Assembly: GCA_007126655.1 (NCBI GenBank)
Contig: SLAV01000154.1
Span: 1-50,995, forward strand
DNA from: Haloferula sp.
GTDB taxonomy: Bacteria; Verrucomicrobiota; Verrucomicrobiia; Verrucomicrobiales; Akkermansiaceae
Length of the DNA: 50,995 nucleotides
Direction: 5' to 3'
The notes below the pieces were generated by a model. The model had not been told where the DNA came from. It did not search any database and saw only the letters and a program-made list of their open reading frames with translations. Shown piece after piece: positions 7,601 to 49,153 of the stretch (position 1 is the stretch's first letter; every line of letters starts with the position of its first letter). A program made the translations under genes and the position numbers.

Positions 7601-8614
7601 TCAGCCGGCAAGCGGCCGGAGCATCGGCGTGGTCGTTCCGGGGTGGTCCATCGCCGCGCGATAGCCGTATTGGAGCCATCGGTAGGCGACAGTCCACGAA
7701 ATCATGACCACCGGGTAGGCGAAGAAGACCCCGATACAAAGCGCCAGGCAGCCAAGGAATACCACCGCGATGGAGATCAACATGATGAGCACCATGTTCC
7801 CACGGTTGCGTGTCGTCAGGCGCGAACTGGTCTCAAAAGCCTGCATGATCCCGCAATTCCGATCCACCAGTGCATAGATGTAGAGTCCATAACGGGCCAT
7901 CAGGTAGATGCCGGGGGCAATCAGCAAAAGCAAACCCACGCCGACCATGAGGCCGAACAATATCGATGCGCAGACACCCTTGAGAAACAGCCGGCCTTCG
8001 CCGAACAGCTGGGCCGGGCTTGCATCGCGTCCGCTGACAATGCTCAGTGTGAAGCGTGTCAGACCAAGCGCGAGGAATATCGAAAACAGGCTCGAGATGA
8101 TGCTGTTGGCCAAACTCGCGGTGGTCTGGACCGTGAACTCCTGGCCATCCCCGAAATCAATCACCTCCGGGCTGCCACCCCAGCCGAAAACATTGTCCAT
8201 GATGGTTAGGGCGACATTCATGGCGACGTACACCGCGATGTAAACCAACACCGTGAGCAGCACCGTGCCGAGGTGGCGGATGGCGAGGTCGAATCCGCGC
8301 TTGAAGCAGGCCATCGGATCGATGGATTCGCTGCCAGGTTCGATTTCCGGCAGTGCGATCGTTGCGTCCGCGGCGGCGGCGTCCGCCGCGGGCGCGATGC
8401 CGCTTTCGGGCGCGGCGTATGGATCGCTCACCGTACCGTCCGCCTCGCCGGCAAGGCCGGGGGCCTGTGCCGCCGGCAGCCAGTCGGCCATACCGGATTT
8501 CCAGACGAGCGATGTGTTCGGGTCGAGCGTGCCGTTTGCCAGCATGGCCTTGAGTTCGACCTCGGTTACCGGCCCGAGTTGGGCTCCGTCTTTTGAATAA
8601 TACCACTCGCTCAT
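7601..8614 (-). CDS. GYF_2 (DUF4339) domain membrane protein
   Basis: The N-terminal 55 residues form a GYF_2/DUF4339 domain (WYYSKDGAQLGPVTEVELKA, then a Trp in SGMADWLPAA), a putative protein-interaction module. An Ala/Pro-rich linker of about 50 residues leads to an integral membrane domain with five to six hydrophobic segments, for example TVLLTVLVYIAVYVAMNVAL and GVCASILFGLMVGVGLLLLI. This resembles the poorly characterised membrane region shared by DUF975-like proteins. The function is unknown. It is a single gene between yidC and a deaminase gene. Confidence 0.8.
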   Translation of the reverse strand: MSEWYYSKDGAQLGPVTEVELKAMLANGTLDPNTSLVWKSGMADWLPAAQAPGLAGEADGTVSDPYAAPESGIAPAADAAAADATIALPEIEPGSESIDPMACFKRGFDLAIRHLGTVLLTVLVYIAVYVAMNVALTIMDNVFGWGGSPEVIDFGDGQEFTVQTTASLANSIISSLFSIFLALGLTRFTLSIVSGRDASPAQLFGEGRLFLKGVCASILFGLMVGVGLLLLIAPGIYLMARYGLYIYALVDRNCGIMQAFETSSRLTTRNRGNMVLIMLISIAVVFLGCLALCIGVFFAYPVVMISWTVAYRWLQYGYRAAMDHPGTTTPMLRPLAG

Positions 8615-8957
8615 GCGTGGCCAATCTAGCGGGTGGATCCGCGGTGGGAAGCCGAATCACCGCGCGGCGGGAAAATCACGGCGCGATAATCTGGTTGATC
8701 GCGGTACTCGCCGGGGAATTTTCAGGTGGATAACCCCGGGTAAGATCGCGGTGTTCAGTGAATCCATGTCCTTTAACCGCCTTCACCGATTTGCATGCAT
8801 CGCTGTGATAGCAGCTACAAAGACAGCGCTTTGTAAGCACACTTGGATGTTCCGGCCCGAAAGATGCCAGCGGATCACCTCGTCGGTGACCGGCAGGAAC
8901 GCGATGCCGGGAACCACCAGAAAAAATTTCCGCGGACGATCAGCCCGCCCCCGGCCT
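8615..8957. other. intergenic region with a gene relic and a hairpin
   Basis: 343 bases without an intact gene. It contains a relic of a TOTE primase gene (8849-8902) and a perfect 7-bp inverted repeat TACAAAG/CTTTGTA (8816-8822 with 8829-8835, six-base loop). One near-DnaA-box sequence, GGTGGATAA, occurs around 8732, but it is alone. Base composition is less GC-rich than the flanking genes. Confidence 0.5.
8849..8902 (-). pseudogene. relic of a TOTE-type primase-helicase gene
   Basis: Read on the minus strand this stretch encodes AFLPVTDEVIRWHLSGR. The same 17 residues occur in the intact primase-helicase at 32091-34889. At DNA level, 50 of 54 bases match 32289-32342 by my hand alignment. 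Similarity stops abruptly on both sides. No start, stop or flanking domain is preserved, so this is a fragment, not a gene. Confidence 0.75.
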
Positions 8958-9416
8958 TCATTTCGGCATGTCGTGCCGGAACGCGGCCTCGAAGCGGGGG
9001 AAGTCCTCCACCTGTTCCAGCCGCACGCCGTAGAGCGCGGCGATCTCGGGGGCGTCGGAGACGTGATAGACCTCGTGGTAGTAGATCTCGCGGATGCCGT
9101 AGGCGCAGAGCGTCTGCATGCAGGCGGTGCAGGGCATCGTCGTGGTCGCCACCAGGCGGGCCTCGCCGCGGCGGAACAGAGAGCAGAGGTTCACCTCGGC
9201 GTGGAGCATGAATTTCTGCCGCGCCTCGCGGTCGGCCCAGAAGCCGGGCGGAGGATCGTAGCCGGGGGCCAGGCCGTTGTAGGCGGTGCCGATCACGCGG
9301 TTGTCGAAGTCGAGCGCGGCGGCCCCCACCTTGCGGTAGGGATCCTCGGAGCGCAGGCTGGCCACCTGGGCCAGCGCCATCGCGTAGCGCGGAATACTGA
9401 GTCGCTCGTTGGCCAT
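8958..9416 (-). CDS. deoxycytidylate deaminase family protein
   Basis: A zinc-dependent cytidine/deoxycytidylate deaminase fold of 152 residues. The zinc-binding and catalytic motif HAE is at residues 72-74 and the second motif PCTAC at 95-99 (two Cys ligands). The family converts dCMP to dUMP for thymidylate synthesis. The conserved early motif RKVGAAALDFDNRVIGTAYN is also present. It lies just downstream of the aldehyde dehydrogenase on the same strand (28 bases apart). A less specific member of the CMP/dCMP deaminase family is possible. Confidence 0.87.
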   Translation of the reverse strand: MANERLSIPRYAMALAQVASLRSEDPYRKVGAAALDFDNRVIGTAYNGLAPGYDPPPGFWADREARQKFMLHAEVNLCSLFRRGEARLVATTTMPCTACMQTLCAYGIREIYYHEVYHVSDAPEIAALYGVRLEQVEDFPRFEAAFRHDMPK

Positions 9417-29359: not shown

Positions 29360-32005
29360 TCATCCGCCACTGCCACGCGCTTCCCCGGTGGTTTCGATTT
29401 TTTCCGCCTGGGCGAGCGCTTTTTCGGCGGCTTTTTGGTGGGATTCGGCTTCCTCCGGGAGGTCGGCCTCGATGAGCAGGCCGGCGACTTTTTGCTTTTT
29501 GGCGGCGAAGGCGCGGAGTTCGGCGATGCGCTGCTTCTGCTCTTCGGTGAGGGCGGGCTTGGCCGGCGGGGGCGGGACGTCGCCGGCGAGGTGGCGGGTG
29601 GCGCGGGTATTGAGGGTGATGAGGCCGGCTTCGGCGAGTTGCCGGAGGTTGGCCCAGGTCGATTCGTCGAGCACCTGGAGCCTGGGCGGGGCGTCGCCCC
29701 AGCGGGTTTCCCGGAACAGGGCGAAGACGGCGGCGGCGCGGGATGGATCGCGCAGGACGGCGAGGACGACCGGGTTGTTGTCGCCGGGCAGCATGGCTTC
29801 CTGGCAGTGGACGAGCGACTGGCCGAGGGTGGCGGCGGTGCGTCGGGCGAAGGCCGCGGCGGGGTCGGATGCGGTGGGGTCGGATGCGGTGGGGTCGGAT
29901 GCGGCGGTGGCCTGGGCTTCGGGGGCCTTGCCGTCGGGGGTGTCCGCGAGGAATTGTTTGAGGCGGGTGAGGTTGGCGTCGGCCCCGCGCTTGAGCTTGG
30001 TTTGTTCGAGGGATTCGTCGGAGCCGTCGAGCACGCCCTGGGCGAGGCTGGATTTGAGGGCGAGGGTTTCGAGCATGGATTGCTCGATGGTGTCCTCCGC
30101 AACGAGGTTGATGACGGTGACGGGGCGCTTCTGGTTTTTGCGCCAGGCGCGGGCGATGCGCTGTTCGAGCTTGGCGGGGTTCCAAGGAAGGTCGCAGTTG
30201 ATGACGACGCTTGCGTTTTGCAAGTTCAGCCCGACGCCGCCGGAATCGGTTGAGAGGAAGAGGCGGCATCCGGGGTCTTCGCGGAAGGCGATGATCTCGC
30301 CCCGGCGCTTTTTCTGGGGCACGCTGCCGGTGTGCCAGGCGTGGCCGACGTCGTTGGCCTCGGCCCAGCCACGCACCTTGCGGAGCATGCCCTCCCATTC
30401 GGAGAAGATGATGATTTTGACGTCTGGATCCTGGAGCGCTTCGTCGAGGATTTTGGTGAGTTCGTCGAGCTTGGGGCAGTCCTCGCAGTCTTGGCCTTTG
30501 ACGATGGATGGCGAGTCGCAGATCATGCGCATGATGCCGAGGTAGATCATGAGGCGCTCGGACTCCTCTTTTTTGAGCGGGCGCTTGAGCGACTGTTGGA
30601 CGAGGCGGGAGACTCGGAGTTTGTATTCGTCGTATTCCATGCGCATGGCGCGGGTGAGTTTGACGAAGTGGTTGCGGTCGCTGCGGTCGGGGAGTTCGGT
30701 CTCGACGTGGTGCTTGCGGCGGCGGAGCAGCACGGGGCGCACGCGCTCGCGGAGGGCGGCGAGGTTCTTGTAATCCTCGGGGCGGCCCTTTTCGTTGAAT
30801 TGATAGAACTCGCGGTTGAAGCGGAACAGCGGACCCAGCAGCGACGGATCGAGGAAATCGACGATGGAGTAGAGTTCGTCGATGCGGTTCTCGATGGGGG
30901 TGCCGGTGAGGACGAAGGCGTAGCGGCTCTGCAGGCGCTTGACAGCGCGGGCGGTCTTGGTGGCCCAGTTCTTGATGCGCTGGGCCTCGTCGAGCACGAC
31001 GATGTCGGGCCGCAGGTGGGTGTTGATGTCGAGCGTGTCGGTGACGACCTGCTCGTAGTTGACGATGGTGAAGAACGGCGGGTTCGGATCGGCGTAGTGC
31101 TTGATGCGGGCGGTGCGCGGGCCGAAGACGATCTGCTGGGAAAGGGTGGTGAATTTCCCGATCTGCTCCTCCCACTCGGTCTTGAGCGAGGCGGGGGTGA
31201 CGACGAGGACGCGCCGCGCTTTTCCAAAGTGGTGCAGCAGGGCGCAGGCGGCGATGGCCTGGATGGTCTTGCCGAGGCCCATTTCGTCGGCGAGCAGGGC
31301 GCGCTCGCCGAAGGCGAGGTGCAGCATGCCCTCGCGCTGGTAGGGGTAGAGCGGGTGCAGGGTGACGTGCTCGGGATGGCGGCCGGTGACGACGCCGTTC
31401 TCATATTCGCGGCGCAGGCGGAGGCGCTCGGCGGCGCGGCGGCGGGATTCGAGGAAGGGTTCGACGTCCTGCGAGAGGCGGACTTTTTTCGACCGCCGGA
31501 GGCGCGGGAGGATTTCCTCCGGGTCGTGCTCGTCGAGCAGGAACCCGGCGGGATCGAAGTGCTTGCGCAGGGCGGGGCTGATCTGGTTGCGGTTGCGCTC
31601 GATGGCGAGGCGGTCGCCGACGGGGACGAGATCGACGCGCGGGGAGGCGGATTTTTCCGCGGCCCTGAACTCGGCCTTGCGGCGGCGCTTGAGCCAGATG
31701 AGCGTCGCTTCGACGTGCTTGCAGGTGCCGAGGCCGGCGGTGCGGAAGTCGGGACAGGTGCAGGAAAACGCGCGCGCGCCGAGGTCGCGGATCTCGGTCT
31801 GATAGGTCATGCCGCTGGGCGATTTGACGGCGAAGTTGGCGAAGACCGGGTGGATCTCGTCGAGCGGGGTGACGGAGTGTTTCTCGTCGCGGGCGCGCTG
31901 GACGCGGCGGAGGATCTCGTCCTCGTCGGTGGTGCGCCAGTCGCTTGCGGGTGGTAGCGGGATGCCTTTCGACTTTTTCTTTTTCGCGGATTTCCGGGCG
32001 GGCAT
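29360..32005 (-). CDS. SWIM zinc-finger SNF2-family helicase
   Basis: An 881-residue SF2 ATPase of the SNF2/RapA group. A SWIM zinc finger is at residues 82-97 (Cys82, Cys84, Cys95, His97). Motif I is LLADEMGLGKTIQ (238-249), motif II VLDEAQRIKN (338-347); helicase C motifs follow (DSGGVGLNLQNAS, and RAWRKNQKRPV typical of SNF2 proteins). The last 200 residues are Ala-rich and include a Ser-Asp-Pro repeat. Such proteins remodel RNA polymerase or nucleoprotein, and in bacteria occur in defence islands. The ATG at 32005 leaves 85 bases to the divergent primase-helicase gene. Confidence 0.92.
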   Translation of the reverse strand: MPARKSAKKKKSKGIPLPPASDWRTTDEDEILRRVQRARDEKHSVTPLDEIHPVFANFAVKSPSGMTYQTEIRDLGARAFSCTCPDFRTAGLGTCKHVEATLIWLKRRRKAEFRAAEKSASPRVDLVPVGDRLAIERNRNQISPALRKHFDPAGFLLDEHDPEEILPRLRRSKKVRLSQDVEPFLESRRRAAERLRLRREYENGVVTGRHPEHVTLHPLYPYQREGMLHLAFGERALLADEMGLGKTIQAIAACALLHHFGKARRVLVVTPASLKTEWEEQIGKFTTLSQQIVFGPRTARIKHYADPNPPFFTIVNYEQVVTDTLDINTHLRPDIVVLDEAQRIKNWATKTARAVKRLQSRYAFVLTGTPIENRIDELYSIVDFLDPSLLGPLFRFNREFYQFNEKGRPEDYKNLAALRERVRPVLLRRRKHHVETELPDRSDRNHFVKLTRAMRMEYDEYKLRVSRLVQQSLKRPLKKEESERLMIYLGIMRMICDSPSIVKGQDCEDCPKLDELTKILDEALQDPDVKIIIFSEWEGMLRKVRGWAEANDVGHAWHTGSVPQKKRRGEIIAFREDPGCRLFLSTDSGGVGLNLQNASVVINCDLPWNPAKLEQRIARAWRKNQKRPVTVINLVAEDTIEQSMLETLALKSSLAQGVLDGSDESLEQTKLKRGADANLTRLKQFLADTPDGKAPEAQATAASDPTASDPTASDPAAAFARRTAATLGQSLVHCQEAMLPGDNNPVVLAVLRDPSRAAAVFALFRETRWGDAPPRLQVLDESTWANLRQLAEAGLITLNTRATRHLAGDVPPPPAKPALTEEQKQRIAELRAFAAKKQKVAGLLIEADLPEEAESHQKAAEKALAQAEKIETTGEARGSGG
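29861..29905. repeat. three 15-base tandem repeats inside the SNF2 gene
   Basis: The unit GGGGTCGGATGCGGT occurs three times in a row (last base differs in copy 3). It keeps the frame and encodes the run ASDPTASDPTASDP. In-frame slippage would change the linker length without breaking the gene. Confidence 0.85.
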
Positions 32006-32090
32006 GACGCGTGGAGCATCGGGAACCGGCCAAGGCTTGGCAATTCGGAAGGCGGGTGGTTTTGACACGACCTGTAGGCTGGTGCAGTCC

Positions 32091-34889
32091 GTGATCCACC
32101 ATCGCAGTCCGTCCCACGAGAAGATCGCCCTTTTCCGCTCGCTGTTTCGCGGGCGGGAGGACGTGTATCCGCGCCGCTTCGAGAACCGGCGCACCGGGCG
32201 CGCGGGCTACGCTCCGGCGTGCGGCAACGAATGGGTGCGCGGGATTTGTGAGAAGCCGCGGATCAAGTGCGCGGACTGCCGGCACAAGGCGTTCCTGCCC
32301 GTCACCGACGAGGTGATCCGCTGGCATCTATCGGGCAGGGACAACCACGGCAGGGACTTCGTCGCGGGCGTTTATCCGATGCTTGCGGACGAGACGTGCT
32401 TTTTCCTCGCCATCGATTTCGACAAGGAGAACTGGCGCGACGACGTGCTCGCGGTGATGGCGGCCTGCCGCCGGTTGGAGATCCCCGCCGCGCTGGAGCG
32501 GTCGCGCTCGGGAAACGGCGGGCACGTCTGGTTTTTCTTCTCCCGGGCGGTCCCGGCATGCCAGGCCCGCAAGCTCGGCTCGGCGGTTCTGACGGAAACG
32601 ATGGAGCGGCGCCCGGAGATCGGCCTCGCCTCGTATGACCGGTTGTTCCCGAATCAGGACACGATGCCGAAGGGTGGCTTCGGCAACCTGATCGCGCTGC
32701 CGATGCAGAAGGCGGCGCGGGCCGGCGGCAACAGCCTGTTCGTCGATGACGAATTCCAACCCCTGCCGGACCAATGGGCGTTTCTATCAGGAGTCGGCCG
32801 TCTTTCGCCCGAACGCGTCGGGGAACTTGTGCGGGATATGGAGCGTCGCGGGCATGTGACGGGTGTGCGCTTCGCATTGGTGGAGGAGGATGCGGACGAG
32901 GAACCATGGAACTCCCCGCCCTCGCGCCGTCGGCGCGAGGCACCGCTCAAGGGCACACTGCCTGGGGAACTGCGGCTCGTGCTGGGGGACCAGATTTACC
33001 TGAGCAAGGAGGAAATGCCGCCCCAGCTCCGCAACCGCCTCATCCGGCTGGCGGCGTTCCAGAATCCCGAGTTCTACCGCGCCCAGGCGATGAGGCTCTC
33101 GACCTACAACAAGCCCCGCGTCATCGGCAGCGCCGAGGATCTGCCCGATCACATCGGCCTGCCGCGCGGATGCCTGGATGATTTACTTGCTTTTTTGAAG
33201 CAATCGAAAATCAAGCCCGTCATCCGCGACGAGCGCGTGCGCGGGGAGAAGCTGGATGTCCGCTTCGCCGGCACCCTGAGGCCCGAACAGGAAGCGGCGT
33301 CAGCCGCGATGCTGGCCCATGACACCGGCGTGCTTTCCGCCACCACCGCATTCGGCAAAACCGTGCTCGCCGCGCACCTGATCGCCGCGCGTGGCGTGAA
33401 CACGCTCGTCCTCGTGCACCGCCAGCAGTTGATGGACCAATGGGTCGGGCGGCTTGCCACCTTTCTCGATGTGCCGGAAAAATCGATCGGGCGGCTCGGC
33501 GGCGGGCGCAGGAAGCTCACCGGCGGCCTCGACGTCGCATTGATCCAGAGCCTCGTCCGCAAGGGGGTGGTGGACGACCGGGTGGCGGATTACGGCCATG
33601 TGATCATCGACGAATGCCACCACATGTCGGCCCGGAGTTTCGAACTCGTCGCCCGGCGGGCCAAGGCGCGCTATCTCTGCGGCCTTTCCGCCACGGTCAC
33701 GCGCAAGGACGGCCACCATCCGGTCATCTTCATGCAATGCGGCCCGGTGCGGCACCGGGTCGATGCGAAACAACAGGCGGAGGCCAGGCCATTCAATCAT
33801 CATGTGATCGTGCGTCCCACCGGGTTCCGCCCGGCGTCCGGACCGGATCCCGACCGGCGGATCGAATTCCAGAACCTCTGCGCCGAACTGGTCGGTTGCA
33901 CCCGCCGCAACGAAATGATCCGCGACGAAGTGCTCGCCGCGCTTCGCGAGGGCCGTGCGCCGCTGGTCCTCACCGAACGCACCGAACACGTCGAAGTCCT
34001 CGCGGATCTGCTCCGCCCGCATGTGGCGAATCTTGTGGTCCTGCAGGGCGGCATGGGCCGCAAGGCGCTGCGGGCCGCAATGGACGCGCTGGCCGATGGC
34101 CCGGAAAGCGGAAGCCGGGTGGTGATCGCCACGGGCAGGTTCGTCGGCGAGGGTTTTGACGATCCGCGTCTCGACACGCTGTTCCTCACCATGCCGGTCT
34201 CGTGGCGCGGCATCGTCGCTCAATACGCAGGCCGCCTCCACCGTCTGCACGATGGCAAGCGCGAGGTGCGCGTCCACGACTATGCCGACCTCGACGTGCC
34301 GATGCTCTCGCGCATGTTCGACAAGCGCTGCGCCGGTTACGAGGCCGTGGGCTACACGATCCTGCTGCCGGCGAGCGCCCTGCCCGGCTGGCCCGCCGAA
34401 GTCCCGCTGCCCATCGATTCCGCATGGAAAAACGACTACTCCGCGAGCATCCGCCGCCTCATCCGCGATGGCGTTGATGTGCCGCTGGCGGGCCTTTTCA
34501 TCACCGCCGCCGCGCCCGCGTCCGACGAGCAACGCGCCCGCAGCGCCGCCGAGGCGTTTCTTTTCAAACGCCTCGAATCACTCGCGGAGACATCAGGCCT
34601 TTTCCGACTCAACGCCAAGCTGCCCATCCCCTTCGACAACTGGAGCGAGATGGAGGTCGATCTTTATTGCGCCGAACTCCAGCTCGCCATCGAGATCGAC
34701 GGGCCGCAGCACCTCAACGACCCCGCCGCCTACCGCCGCGACCGCCGCAAGGACGCGCTGCTCCAGGAAAACGGCTGCCACGTCCTGCGCTTCCTCGCCG
34801 ACGACCTCTCCAAACACCTCGACGCCACGCTCGACGCGATCCTGAGAGCCGTCGCGCATCGGCGCGGGCGGAACGGGATCATCCTTTAA
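32091..34889 (+). CDS. TOTE-type archaeo-eukaryotic primase / SF2 helicase / DUF559-like nuclease
   Basis: A 932-residue, three-part protein. Residues 15-70 hold a Cys-rich segment (Cys44, Cys53, Cys60, Cys63). Residues 70-240 are an archaeo-eukaryotic primase domain of the TOTE conflict-system type: AIDFDKENW (107-115), SGNGGHVWFFF (140-150), FGNLIALPMQ (197-206). An SF2 helicase follows, with TTAFGKT (418-424), DECHH (507-511) and SAT (533-535). The C-terminus resembles a DUF559/Vsr-like PD-(D/E)XK nuclease (EVDLYCAELQLAIEIDGPQH). Such proteins are linked to defence against mobile DNA. No ATG fits; GTG 32091 (or 32082) is the likely start. It overlaps the PIN gene by 11 bases, tail to tail. 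Confidence 0.88.
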   Translation: MIHHRSPSHEKIALFRSLFRGREDVYPRRFENRRTGRAGYAPACGNEWVRGICEKPRIKCADCRHKAFLPVTDEVIRWHLSGRDNHGRDFVAGVYPMLADETCFFLAIDFDKENWRDDVLAVMAACRRLEIPAALERSRSGNGGHVWFFFSRAVPACQARKLGSAVLTETMERRPEIGLASYDRLFPNQDTMPKGGFGNLIALPMQKAARAGGNSLFVDDEFQPLPDQWAFLSGVGRLSPERVGELVRDMERRGHVTGVRFALVEEDADEEPWNSPPSRRRREAPLKGTLPGELRLVLGDQIYLSKEEMPPQLRNRLIRLAAFQNPEFYRAQAMRLSTYNKPRVIGSAEDLPDHIGLPRGCLDDLLAFLKQSKIKPVIRDERVRGEKLDVRFAGTLRPEQEAASAAMLAHDTGVLSATTAFGKTVLAAHLIAARGVNTLVLVHRQQLMDQWVGRLATFLDVPEKSIGRLGGGRRKLTGGLDVALIQSLVRKGVVDDRVADYGHVIIDECHHMSARSFELVARRAKARYLCGLSATVTRKDGHHPVIFMQCGPVRHRVDAKQQAEARPFNHHVIVRPTGFRPASGPDPDRRIEFQNLCAELVGCTRRNEMIRDEVLAALREGRAPLVLTERTEHVEVLADLLRPHVANLVVLQGGMGRKALRAAMDALADGPESGSRVVIATGRFVGEGFDDPRLDTLFLTMPVSWRGIVAQYAGRLHRLHDGKREVRVHDYADLDVPMLSRMFDKRCAGYEAVGYTILLPASALPGWPAEVPLPIDSAWKNDYSASIRRLIRDGVDVPLAGLFITAAAPASDEQRARSAAEAFLFKRLESLAETSGLFRLNAKLPIPFDNWSEMEVDLYCAELQLAIEIDGPQHLNDPAAYRRDRRKDALLQENGCHVLRFLADDLSKHLDATLDAILRAVAHRRGRNGIIL

Positions 34890-37101: not shown

Positions 37102-38088
37102 TCATGACAGCAGATCCTTCACCGCCTCGCGCTCTTCCTTGAGTTCGGCGATGGTGGCGTCGATTTTCTCCTGGCTGAAGGCGTCGATGGGCAGGCCCTG
37201 GACGACCTCCCAGGTACCGTCCGCTTTGGTGCGGATTGGCATGGAGGCGATGAGGCCGGGTTCGATGCCGTAGGAACCATCCGAACAGACGGCGACGGAA
37301 TGCCAGTCGCCGTCCGGAGTCGGGCTGATCAGGGCCTTCATGGTATCCAGTGCGGCGTTGGCGGCGCTGGCGGCGGAAGAGGCACCGCGGGCCTTGATGA
37401 TGGCCGCACCCCGCTGCTGCACGGTGGTGATGAACTCGCCCCTGAGCCACTCCTCGTCGCGGATGACTTCCGTGACCGGCTTGCCTTCGATTTTCGCGTT
37501 GGTGAAATCCGGATACTGCGTGGCGGAGTGGTTGCCCCAGATGCAGAGGTTGGTCACGTCGGAGGCATGGACGCCGGCTTTCGAGGCGAGCTGTGATTTG
37601 GCGCGGTTCTCGTCGAGGCGGGTCATCGCGAAGAAGCGGTCCTCGGGCACACCCGCCGCGTTGCGCATTGCGATCAAAGCGTTGGTGTTGCACGGATTGC
37701 CGACGACGAGCACGCGGACATCCTTGGCGGCGTTGCGTGCGATCGCCTTGCCCTGGCTGGTGAAGATCTTGCCGTTGATGCCGAGCAGGTCGCCGCGCTC
37801 CATGCCCGCCTTGCGCGGAACAGAGCCGACGAGCAACGCCCAGCTGGCCCCCGTAAACCCTTCGTCGAGGTCCGTCGTCGTGATGATGCTGTTGAGCAGC
37901 GGAAAGGCGCTGTCATCAAGCTCCATGACGACGCCGAGCAGCGCGGGCAGCGCGGGTTCGATCTCGATCAACCGGAGTCTGACCGGCTGGTCTTTGCCGA
38001 AAATTTCACCGGTGGCGATGCGGAAAAGGAGGGCGTAGCCGATTTGGCCGGCAGCGCCGGTAACGGAAACAGTGATGGGTGGCTTCAT
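37102..38088 (-). CDS. mdh: malate dehydrogenase, stand-alone copy
   Basis: A 328-residue NAD-dependent dehydrogenase of the cytosolic-type malate dehydrogenase group. The nucleotide loop is [13 protein letters not shown], the substrate arginine loop [15 protein letters not shown], with NPCNTNA, a second Arg in [12 protein letters not shown] and the catalytic His in [13 protein letters not shown]. It interconverts malate and oxaloacetate in the TCA cycle. A near-identical paralogue closes the BMC operon at 48167. A good promoter candidate precedes it; the ATG at 38088 matches the paralogue's start. Confidence 0.95.
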
Positions 38089-48166: not shown

Positions 48167-49153
48167 ATGAAAGCACCCATCACCGTCTCCATCACCGGCG
48201 CCGCTGGCCAGATCGGCTACGCGCTTTTGTTCCGCATCGCCACCGGTGAGATCTTCGGCAAGGACCAGCCCGTCAACCTCCGCCTCATCGAGATCGAGCC
48301 CGGCATGGCCGCGCTCAAGGGCGTCATGATGGAACTCGACGACTGCGCCTTCCCGCTCCTCAACGAAGTTGTGGGGACGTCCTGCCTCAACGAAGGATTC
48401 AAAGGGGCAAACTGGGCGCTGCTCGTCGGCTCCGTCCCGCGCAAGGCCGGGATGGAACGCGGCGACCTGCTCGGCATCAACGGCAAGATATTCATCAGCC
48501 AGGGCCAGGCCATCTCCCGCAACGCCGCGCGGGACGTCCGCGTGCTCGTCGTCGGCAACCCGTGCAACACCAATGCGCTCATCGCCATGAGGCACGCCGT
48601 GAGCATCCCGGACGACCGCTTCTTCGCGATGACCCGCCTCGACGAAAACCGCGCCAAATCCCAGCTTGCCCGAAAAGCCGCCGTCCACCCGTCCAAAGTC
48701 ACCAACCTCTGCATCTGGGGCAACCACTCCGCCACCCAATACCCCGACTTCACCAACGCCAAAATCAACAACCGCCCGTGTACCGACGTGATCTCCCATG
48801 TCGCCTGGCTCAAAGGTGAATTCATCACCACCGTTCAACAACGCGGAGCCGCCATCATCAAGGCCCGCGGAGCCTCCTCCGCCGCCAGCGCCGCCAACGC
48901 CGCGCTCGACACCGTCAAATCCCTCATCACCCCCACGCCCAAAGGCGACTGGCACTCCGTCGCCGTCTGTTCCGACGGTTCCTACGGCATCGAACCCGGC
49001 CTCATCGCCTCCATGCCCATCCGCACCAACGAAGAGGGCACCTGGGAAGTCGTCCAAGGCCTCCCCATCGACTCCTTCAGCCAGGAAAAAATCAACGCCA
49101 CCATCGCCGAACTCAAAGAAGAACGCGACGCCGTGAAGCACCTCCTGCCGTAA
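48167..49153 (+). CDS. malate/lactate dehydrogenase, BMC-operon copy
   Basis: A 328-residue paralogue of the enzyme at 37102-38088, with the same motifs ([38 protein letters not shown]) and identical length. By eye about four in five residues match. Differences cluster at residues 46-80 and 195-215. It has no N- or C-terminal encapsulation extension. It starts four bases after the aldolase stop. Recycling NADH formed by the aldehyde dehydrogenase, or acting on lactate, are the plausible roles; the conserved substrate arginines argue for malate/oxaloacetate. Confidence 0.92.

What the first reader, a model, noticed from the sequence alone, without database searches (positions are those of the whole stretch)
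8849..8902. Relic of a TOTE primase-helicase gene far from the intact copy
A 54-base intergenic segment matches 50 bases of the intact gene at 32289-32342, and encodes the identical peptide AFLPVTDEVIRWHLSGR. Either a second copy of this defence-type gene decayed here, or a fragment was copied. Retention of just this segment, which is highly conserved in the domain, is odd.
Basis: partly seen in the sequence, partly recalled or inferred. Interest (0 to 1): 0.65.

Follow-up and report, generated by a model that had tools for sequence, protein, structure and literature searches.

The report
Short broken piece of defence gene
A 59-letter scrap between two ordinary bacterial genes is a leftover or stray copy of part of a defence-type gene whose whole copy lies 23,000 letters away; such scraps also occur in related bacteria, so this looks like ordinary gene turnover.

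Summary
Window 8844-8902 (minus strand) matches 32289-32347, inside an intact 933-residue TOTE primase-helicase-nuclease gene, over 59 nt at 92% (E 2.8e-16 in the whole genome). The 17-residue peptide is identical. Nothing else in the 343-nt gap is recognisably TOTE: the flanks do not beat shuffles, and a profile of 13 TOTE genes gives one match, 8846-8918. The three differences inside the 17 codons are all synonymous, and each relic variant occurs in another species' intact gene. The piece therefore probably comes from a second TOTE allele, cut down by deletions or captured as a short fragment, rather than from slow decay of a copy of the resident gene. The same genome holds a second orphan, a C-terminal piece on contig C83 (81% DNA identity). 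11 of 195 family genomes hold TOTE fragments, while none of 28 with a near-full-length gene has two. No convincing orphan copy of this block was found elsewhere, and no relative shares the site, so the event cannot be dated. I find no evidence of function. Verdict: real, an ordinary gene remnant, low interest.

The parts
8844..8902 (-). orphan fragment of a TOTE gene (corresponds to about residues 68-87 of the resident protein, numbered from 32088)
   Evidence: the repeat finder I3 and genome searches; homologue table
8903..8918 (-). possible short extension of the fragment; weak
   Evidence: profile match runs 8846-8918, but flank alignments do not beat shuffles
32088..34889 (+). intact resident TOTE gene (AEP primase, SF2 helicase, DUF559 nuclease-like domain), 933 aa as read from 32088; the start codon was not tested
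   Evidence: Pfam PF22548 E 1.6e-98, PF04851, PF04480
32289..32347 (+). stretch of the intact gene matched by the fragment
8958..9416 (-). flanking cytidine/dCMP deaminase gene
   Evidence: PF00383
7601..8614 (-). flanking GYF_2-domain gene
   Evidence: PF14237

Best explanation
The segment is a non-functional remnant of a second TOTE allele. TOTE genes are patchily present in this family. An additional allele, distinct from the resident one, once lay between the deaminase and GYF genes, and deletions removed nearly all of it, leaving about 59 nt. Shown: homology, orientation, sharp borders, synonymous-only differences in the 17 codons, other TOTE fragments in the same genome and in relatives. 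Inferred: that a whole gene once stood here, and that deletions removed it.
For: The match is real. It has the same strand as both neighbouring genes. The differences in the 17 codons are 3 of 3 synonymous; about 26% of single changes would be, P about 0.018. Each relic synonymous variant is found in another species' intact gene: the Pro codon CCG in L012, L013, L017 and L018, and CTT plus CGG in L015. A second orphan piece lies in the same genome at C83:3255-3432 (81% over 178 nt). TOTE fragments (at least 40% identity, under 520 residues covered) occur in 11 of 195 family genomes, the window's included; 28 of 195 have a near-full-length gene and none of these has two. Some fragments carry stops or an internal deletion: G009 joins residues up to about 65-71 to residues from about 616-638. 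Homologues as close as those of the genus sit in another genus (G162, 80%) and in another family of the order (L117, 79.7% over residues 1-587), so alleles may be exchanged between lineages.
Against: No other TOTE piece survives in the gap, so nothing shows directly that a whole gene was here. Other very short relics lie at a gene end (N-terminal in G185, G162, G017; C-terminal in C83 and G183:C13), whereas this one is internal. No relative with the same deaminase-GYF junction was found. The synonymous test rests on three changes only and ignores transition bias. Just past the 17 codons two further differences change the residues.
Confidence: 0.5

Rival explanations
1. A short TOTE fragment was captured at this site (filler DNA or template switching during break repair, or a small ectopic copy); a whole second gene never stood here.
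For: Sharp borders on both sides and no collinear TOTE sequence beyond about 59-73 nt; the fragment is internal to the gene.
Against: A recent copy of the resident gene should be nearly identical or should differ at random codon positions; here 5 of 59 differ and the 3 inside the 17 codons are synonymous. A donor from another lineage would have to be assumed.
Confidence: 0.33
2. Assembly artefact: two unrelated contigs of the fragmented assembly were joined through a TOTE-derived stretch.
For: The assembly has 390 contigs. None of the 29 relatives' deaminase loci that I examined has the GYF gene within its flanks of at most 1.5 kb.
Against: The fragment lies inside a gap with 229 nt of unrelated sequence on one side and 55 on the other, and its allele differs from the resident one. 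In G039 and G020 the deaminase gene and a GYF homologue lie on one contig, about 12 and 16 kb apart.
Confidence: 0.1
3. The segment is functional, as a trans-acting antisense RNA to the TOTE mRNA (plus strand) or as a recombination or attachment site matching the TOTE gene.
For: The plus strand is complementary to the resident mRNA at 54 of 59 positions. The adjoining minus-strand stretch 8760-8905 folds better than 200 of 200 shuffles (z -3.06).
Against: No promoter-like site on the plus strand in 8500-9100, no Rfam match, and the plus strand, which would be the antisense RNA, folds no better than shuffles (z -0.59). No convincing orphan copy among 73 genus, 260 family or 386 order genomes (overlapping sets): matches tested are in TOTE genes, apart from four weak ones of 23-50 nt; five more weak ones were not fetched. 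Of 30 window translations scanned (some overlap or repeat) none hit an integrase or transposase family in Pfam; not all ORFs were scanned.
Confidence: 0.04

Closest known systems
TOTE-type AEP primase-helicase-nuclease gene (Pfam AEP-TOTE, PF22548)
   Same: the fragment encodes 17 residues identical to the resident member and, except for the last (R to K), to those of L017 and L018
   Different: no start, no domain, under 20 codons; cannot make a TOTE protein
Bacterial gene remnants / pseudogene fragments in intergenic space (general knowledge)
   Same: short, orphan, homologous to a gene elsewhere in the genome, no copy at a conserved position in relatives
   Different: an internal block with sharp borders instead of a gene end or a long frame-shifted pseudogene

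Membership tests
AEP-TOTE gene (PF22548) | AEP primase domain of about 230 positions followed by SF2 helicase and nuclease domains | tested here: not met
   met by the resident gene 32088-34889; the fragment covers under 20 codons
Gene remnant (pseudogene fragment) | significant homology to a protein-coding gene, no intact frame | tested here: met
   E 2.8e-16 in the own genome; 59 nt, and the minus-strand frame stops 22 codons after the 17
Gene remnant (pseudogene fragment) | an intact gene at the same site in a relative | tested here: inconclusive
   no relative with the same junction was found; loci of 29 of the 57 relatives with a deaminase hit were examined, and the GYF protein was sought in 260 genomes and one collection scan
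Regulatory antisense RNA | promoter, stable fold or known RNA family, conservation across relatives | tested here: not met
Regulatory antisense RNA | transcription of the plus strand | not testable with these tools
   no expression data on hand

The most novel reading that the evidence does not exclude
The 59-nt block is kept because it acts against, or recombines with, the resident TOTE gene: a trans-acting antisense RNA to the defence-type mRNA, or an attachment-site-like landmark left by a mobile element that targets the TOTE gene.
Probability: 0.04. Interest if true: 0.5.

Novelty: new member of a known kind. Interest (0 to 1): 0.12.

Why it matters
Little on its own. It adds one datum to a pattern seen here: near-full-length TOTE genes are single-copy and patchy, while scraps of other TOTE alleles lie in some of the same genomes, as expected of a defence-type gene that is gained and lost often. 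Comparing fragments with intact genes could be used to estimate that turnover.

Tried and rejected
Extension of homology into the flanks: tblastn aligned residues 38-102 at 36% (E 1.9e-6), which looked like a longer relic. Anchored protein alignments of the flanks reached the observed score in 387 (upstream) and 1178 (downstream) of 5000 shuffles, and DNA alignments in 104 and 271 of 500. The profile with the core masked gave no match. The E-value is therefore carried by the core.

'Only the conserved block is still recognisable' was rejected: within the clade the flanks are nearly as alike as the block.

Same-site comparison: 29 relatives' deaminase loci, the GYF protein in 260 family genomes and one genome-contig scan (4 loci, all partial N-terminal matches at 32-41% identity) gave no shared junction.

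Plasmid and phage records gave no match. Rfam gave none. The neighbouring hairpin-like stretch 8745-8850 has no second copy in the genome (best other match 16 nt, E 0.38).

Literature: 'TOTE conflict system' gave 0 papers. A broader search found 32 papers and listed 20, none of the 20 holding the word TOTE; I saw only the listing with abstract beginnings. The search on decayed defence genes listed one paper on another subject. I opened no paper. That TOTE genes are proposed conflict systems comes from the Pfam description and recall.

Full report
Observation. The window is the whole of contig 306 of a 390-contig, 4.1-Mb assembly. Window 8844-8902 and 32289-32347 form an inverted pair, 54 of 59 bases alike. 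Against the whole assembly the match has E 3.4e-17 with the 343-nt query and 2.8e-16 with the TOTE gene as query. It is not chance. The target is an intact gene whose 933-residue product (read from 32088) carries AEP-TOTE (E 1.6e-98), ResIII/DEAD helicase and DUF559 nuclease-like matches. The fragment lies in a 343-nt gap between a deaminase gene and a GYF_2 gene, on the same strand as both.

Extent. In 12 homologues of the same clade the DNA around this block is nearly as alike as the block itself, so a relic with a 92% identical core should have recognisable flanks if they were still there. They are not recognisable. Blastn with words of 7 found only the core and up to about ten bases beyond it. 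Flank alignments reached the observed protein scores in 387 of 5000 (upstream) and 1178 of 5000 (downstream) shuffles, and the DNA scores in 104 and 271 of 500. A profile of 13 clade genes gave one match, 8846-8918, and nothing when the core was masked. The borders are therefore sharp on the downstream side and within about 16 nt on the upstream side.

Source. Inside the 17 codons the relic and the resident gene differ at three bases, all synonymous; at random about a quarter of changes would be (P about 0.018). This is three events only, with no correction for transition bias. Each of the relic's three variants is present in some other species' intact gene. Beyond the 17 codons, near the border, two more bases differ and change the residues. 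Among the genomes searched, the resident gene is the best match; the next are G188 and G185 (92% over 49 nt), of another genus. I read this as an allele of the same clade that diverged as a working gene before it was cut down. A copy of the resident gene followed by changes is less likely but not excluded.

Context of fragments. The genome holds a second orphan, C83:3255-3432, a C-terminal piece with 81% DNA identity, beside an unrelated gene near the end of a 3,578-nt contig. In the family sample (195 genomes, at most four candidates scored per genome) I counted by hand from the printed table. 28 of 195 genomes have a near-full-length TOTE gene (700 residues or more covered, at least 40% identity; one has a stop inside, G186, and one, G028, is in two pieces). 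None of the 28 has two. 11 of 195 have one or more fragments (at least 40% identity, under 520 residues covered): G081, G009, G200, G156, G183, G026, G000, G185, G120, G162, G017; five of these (G000, G026, G185, G162, G017) also have a near-full-length gene. G200's runs off a contig end and G162's ends 41 nt from one. Matches under 40% identity, mostly distant helicases, were left out of both counts. I ran no control gene, so I do not claim that TOTE leaves more fragments than other genes.

Orphan copies elsewhere. The fragment was searched in 73 genus genomes (9 with a match), 260 family genomes (13) and 386 order genomes (21); the sets overlap and include the window's own genome. Every match in another genome whose surroundings I tested is in a TOTE gene, except four weak ones (L113-L116; 23-50 nt) with no TOTE around them. 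Five weak order matches (G281, G303, G365, G308, G269) were not fetched. No convincing second orphan of this block was found.

Function. No Rfam match and no plus-strand promoter-like site in 8500-9100; the 343-nt gap has no match in phages or plasmids. The minus-strand stretch 8760-8905 folds better than all 200 shuffles (z -3.06), largely through a hairpin-like stretch outside the fragment, and terminator-like sites lie at 8948-8932 and 8840-8826 on that strand, so it may end the deaminase transcript (inference). The fragment with its upstream flank folds no better than shuffles (z -0.38).

Verdict. A real, small TOTE remnant. Loss of most of a second allele by deletion is my first choice (0.5), capture of a fragment second (0.33), assembly error third (0.1), function last (0.04). 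No relative found shares the site, so the choice between the first two cannot be made here.

Noticed in passing
G000 contig C83:3255-3432 (L042, L081): Second TOTE orphan in the same genome: C-terminal nuclease-domain piece, 81% DNA identity over 178 nt, near the contig end.
   Followed up: partly
window 8762-8848, minus strand: Imperfect palindrome beside the fragment; 8760-8905 minus folds better than 200 of 200 shuffles (z -3.06). No second copy in the genome. Possibly a transcription terminator.
   Followed up: partly
L086 (G009:C8:2267-3260): TOTE gene with an internal deletion joining about residue 65-71 to about residue 616-638.
   Followed up: no
window 37108-38088 and 48167-49147: Two inverted copies, 80-83% alike; the first is a malate/lactate dehydrogenase gene (PF02866, PF00056).
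   Followed up: no
window 29360-32194, minus: SNF2-type helicase gene pointing away from the TOTE gene, with matches to ZorD and DpdE models of PADLOC; a PIN-domain gene lies just behind TOTE.
   Followed up: no
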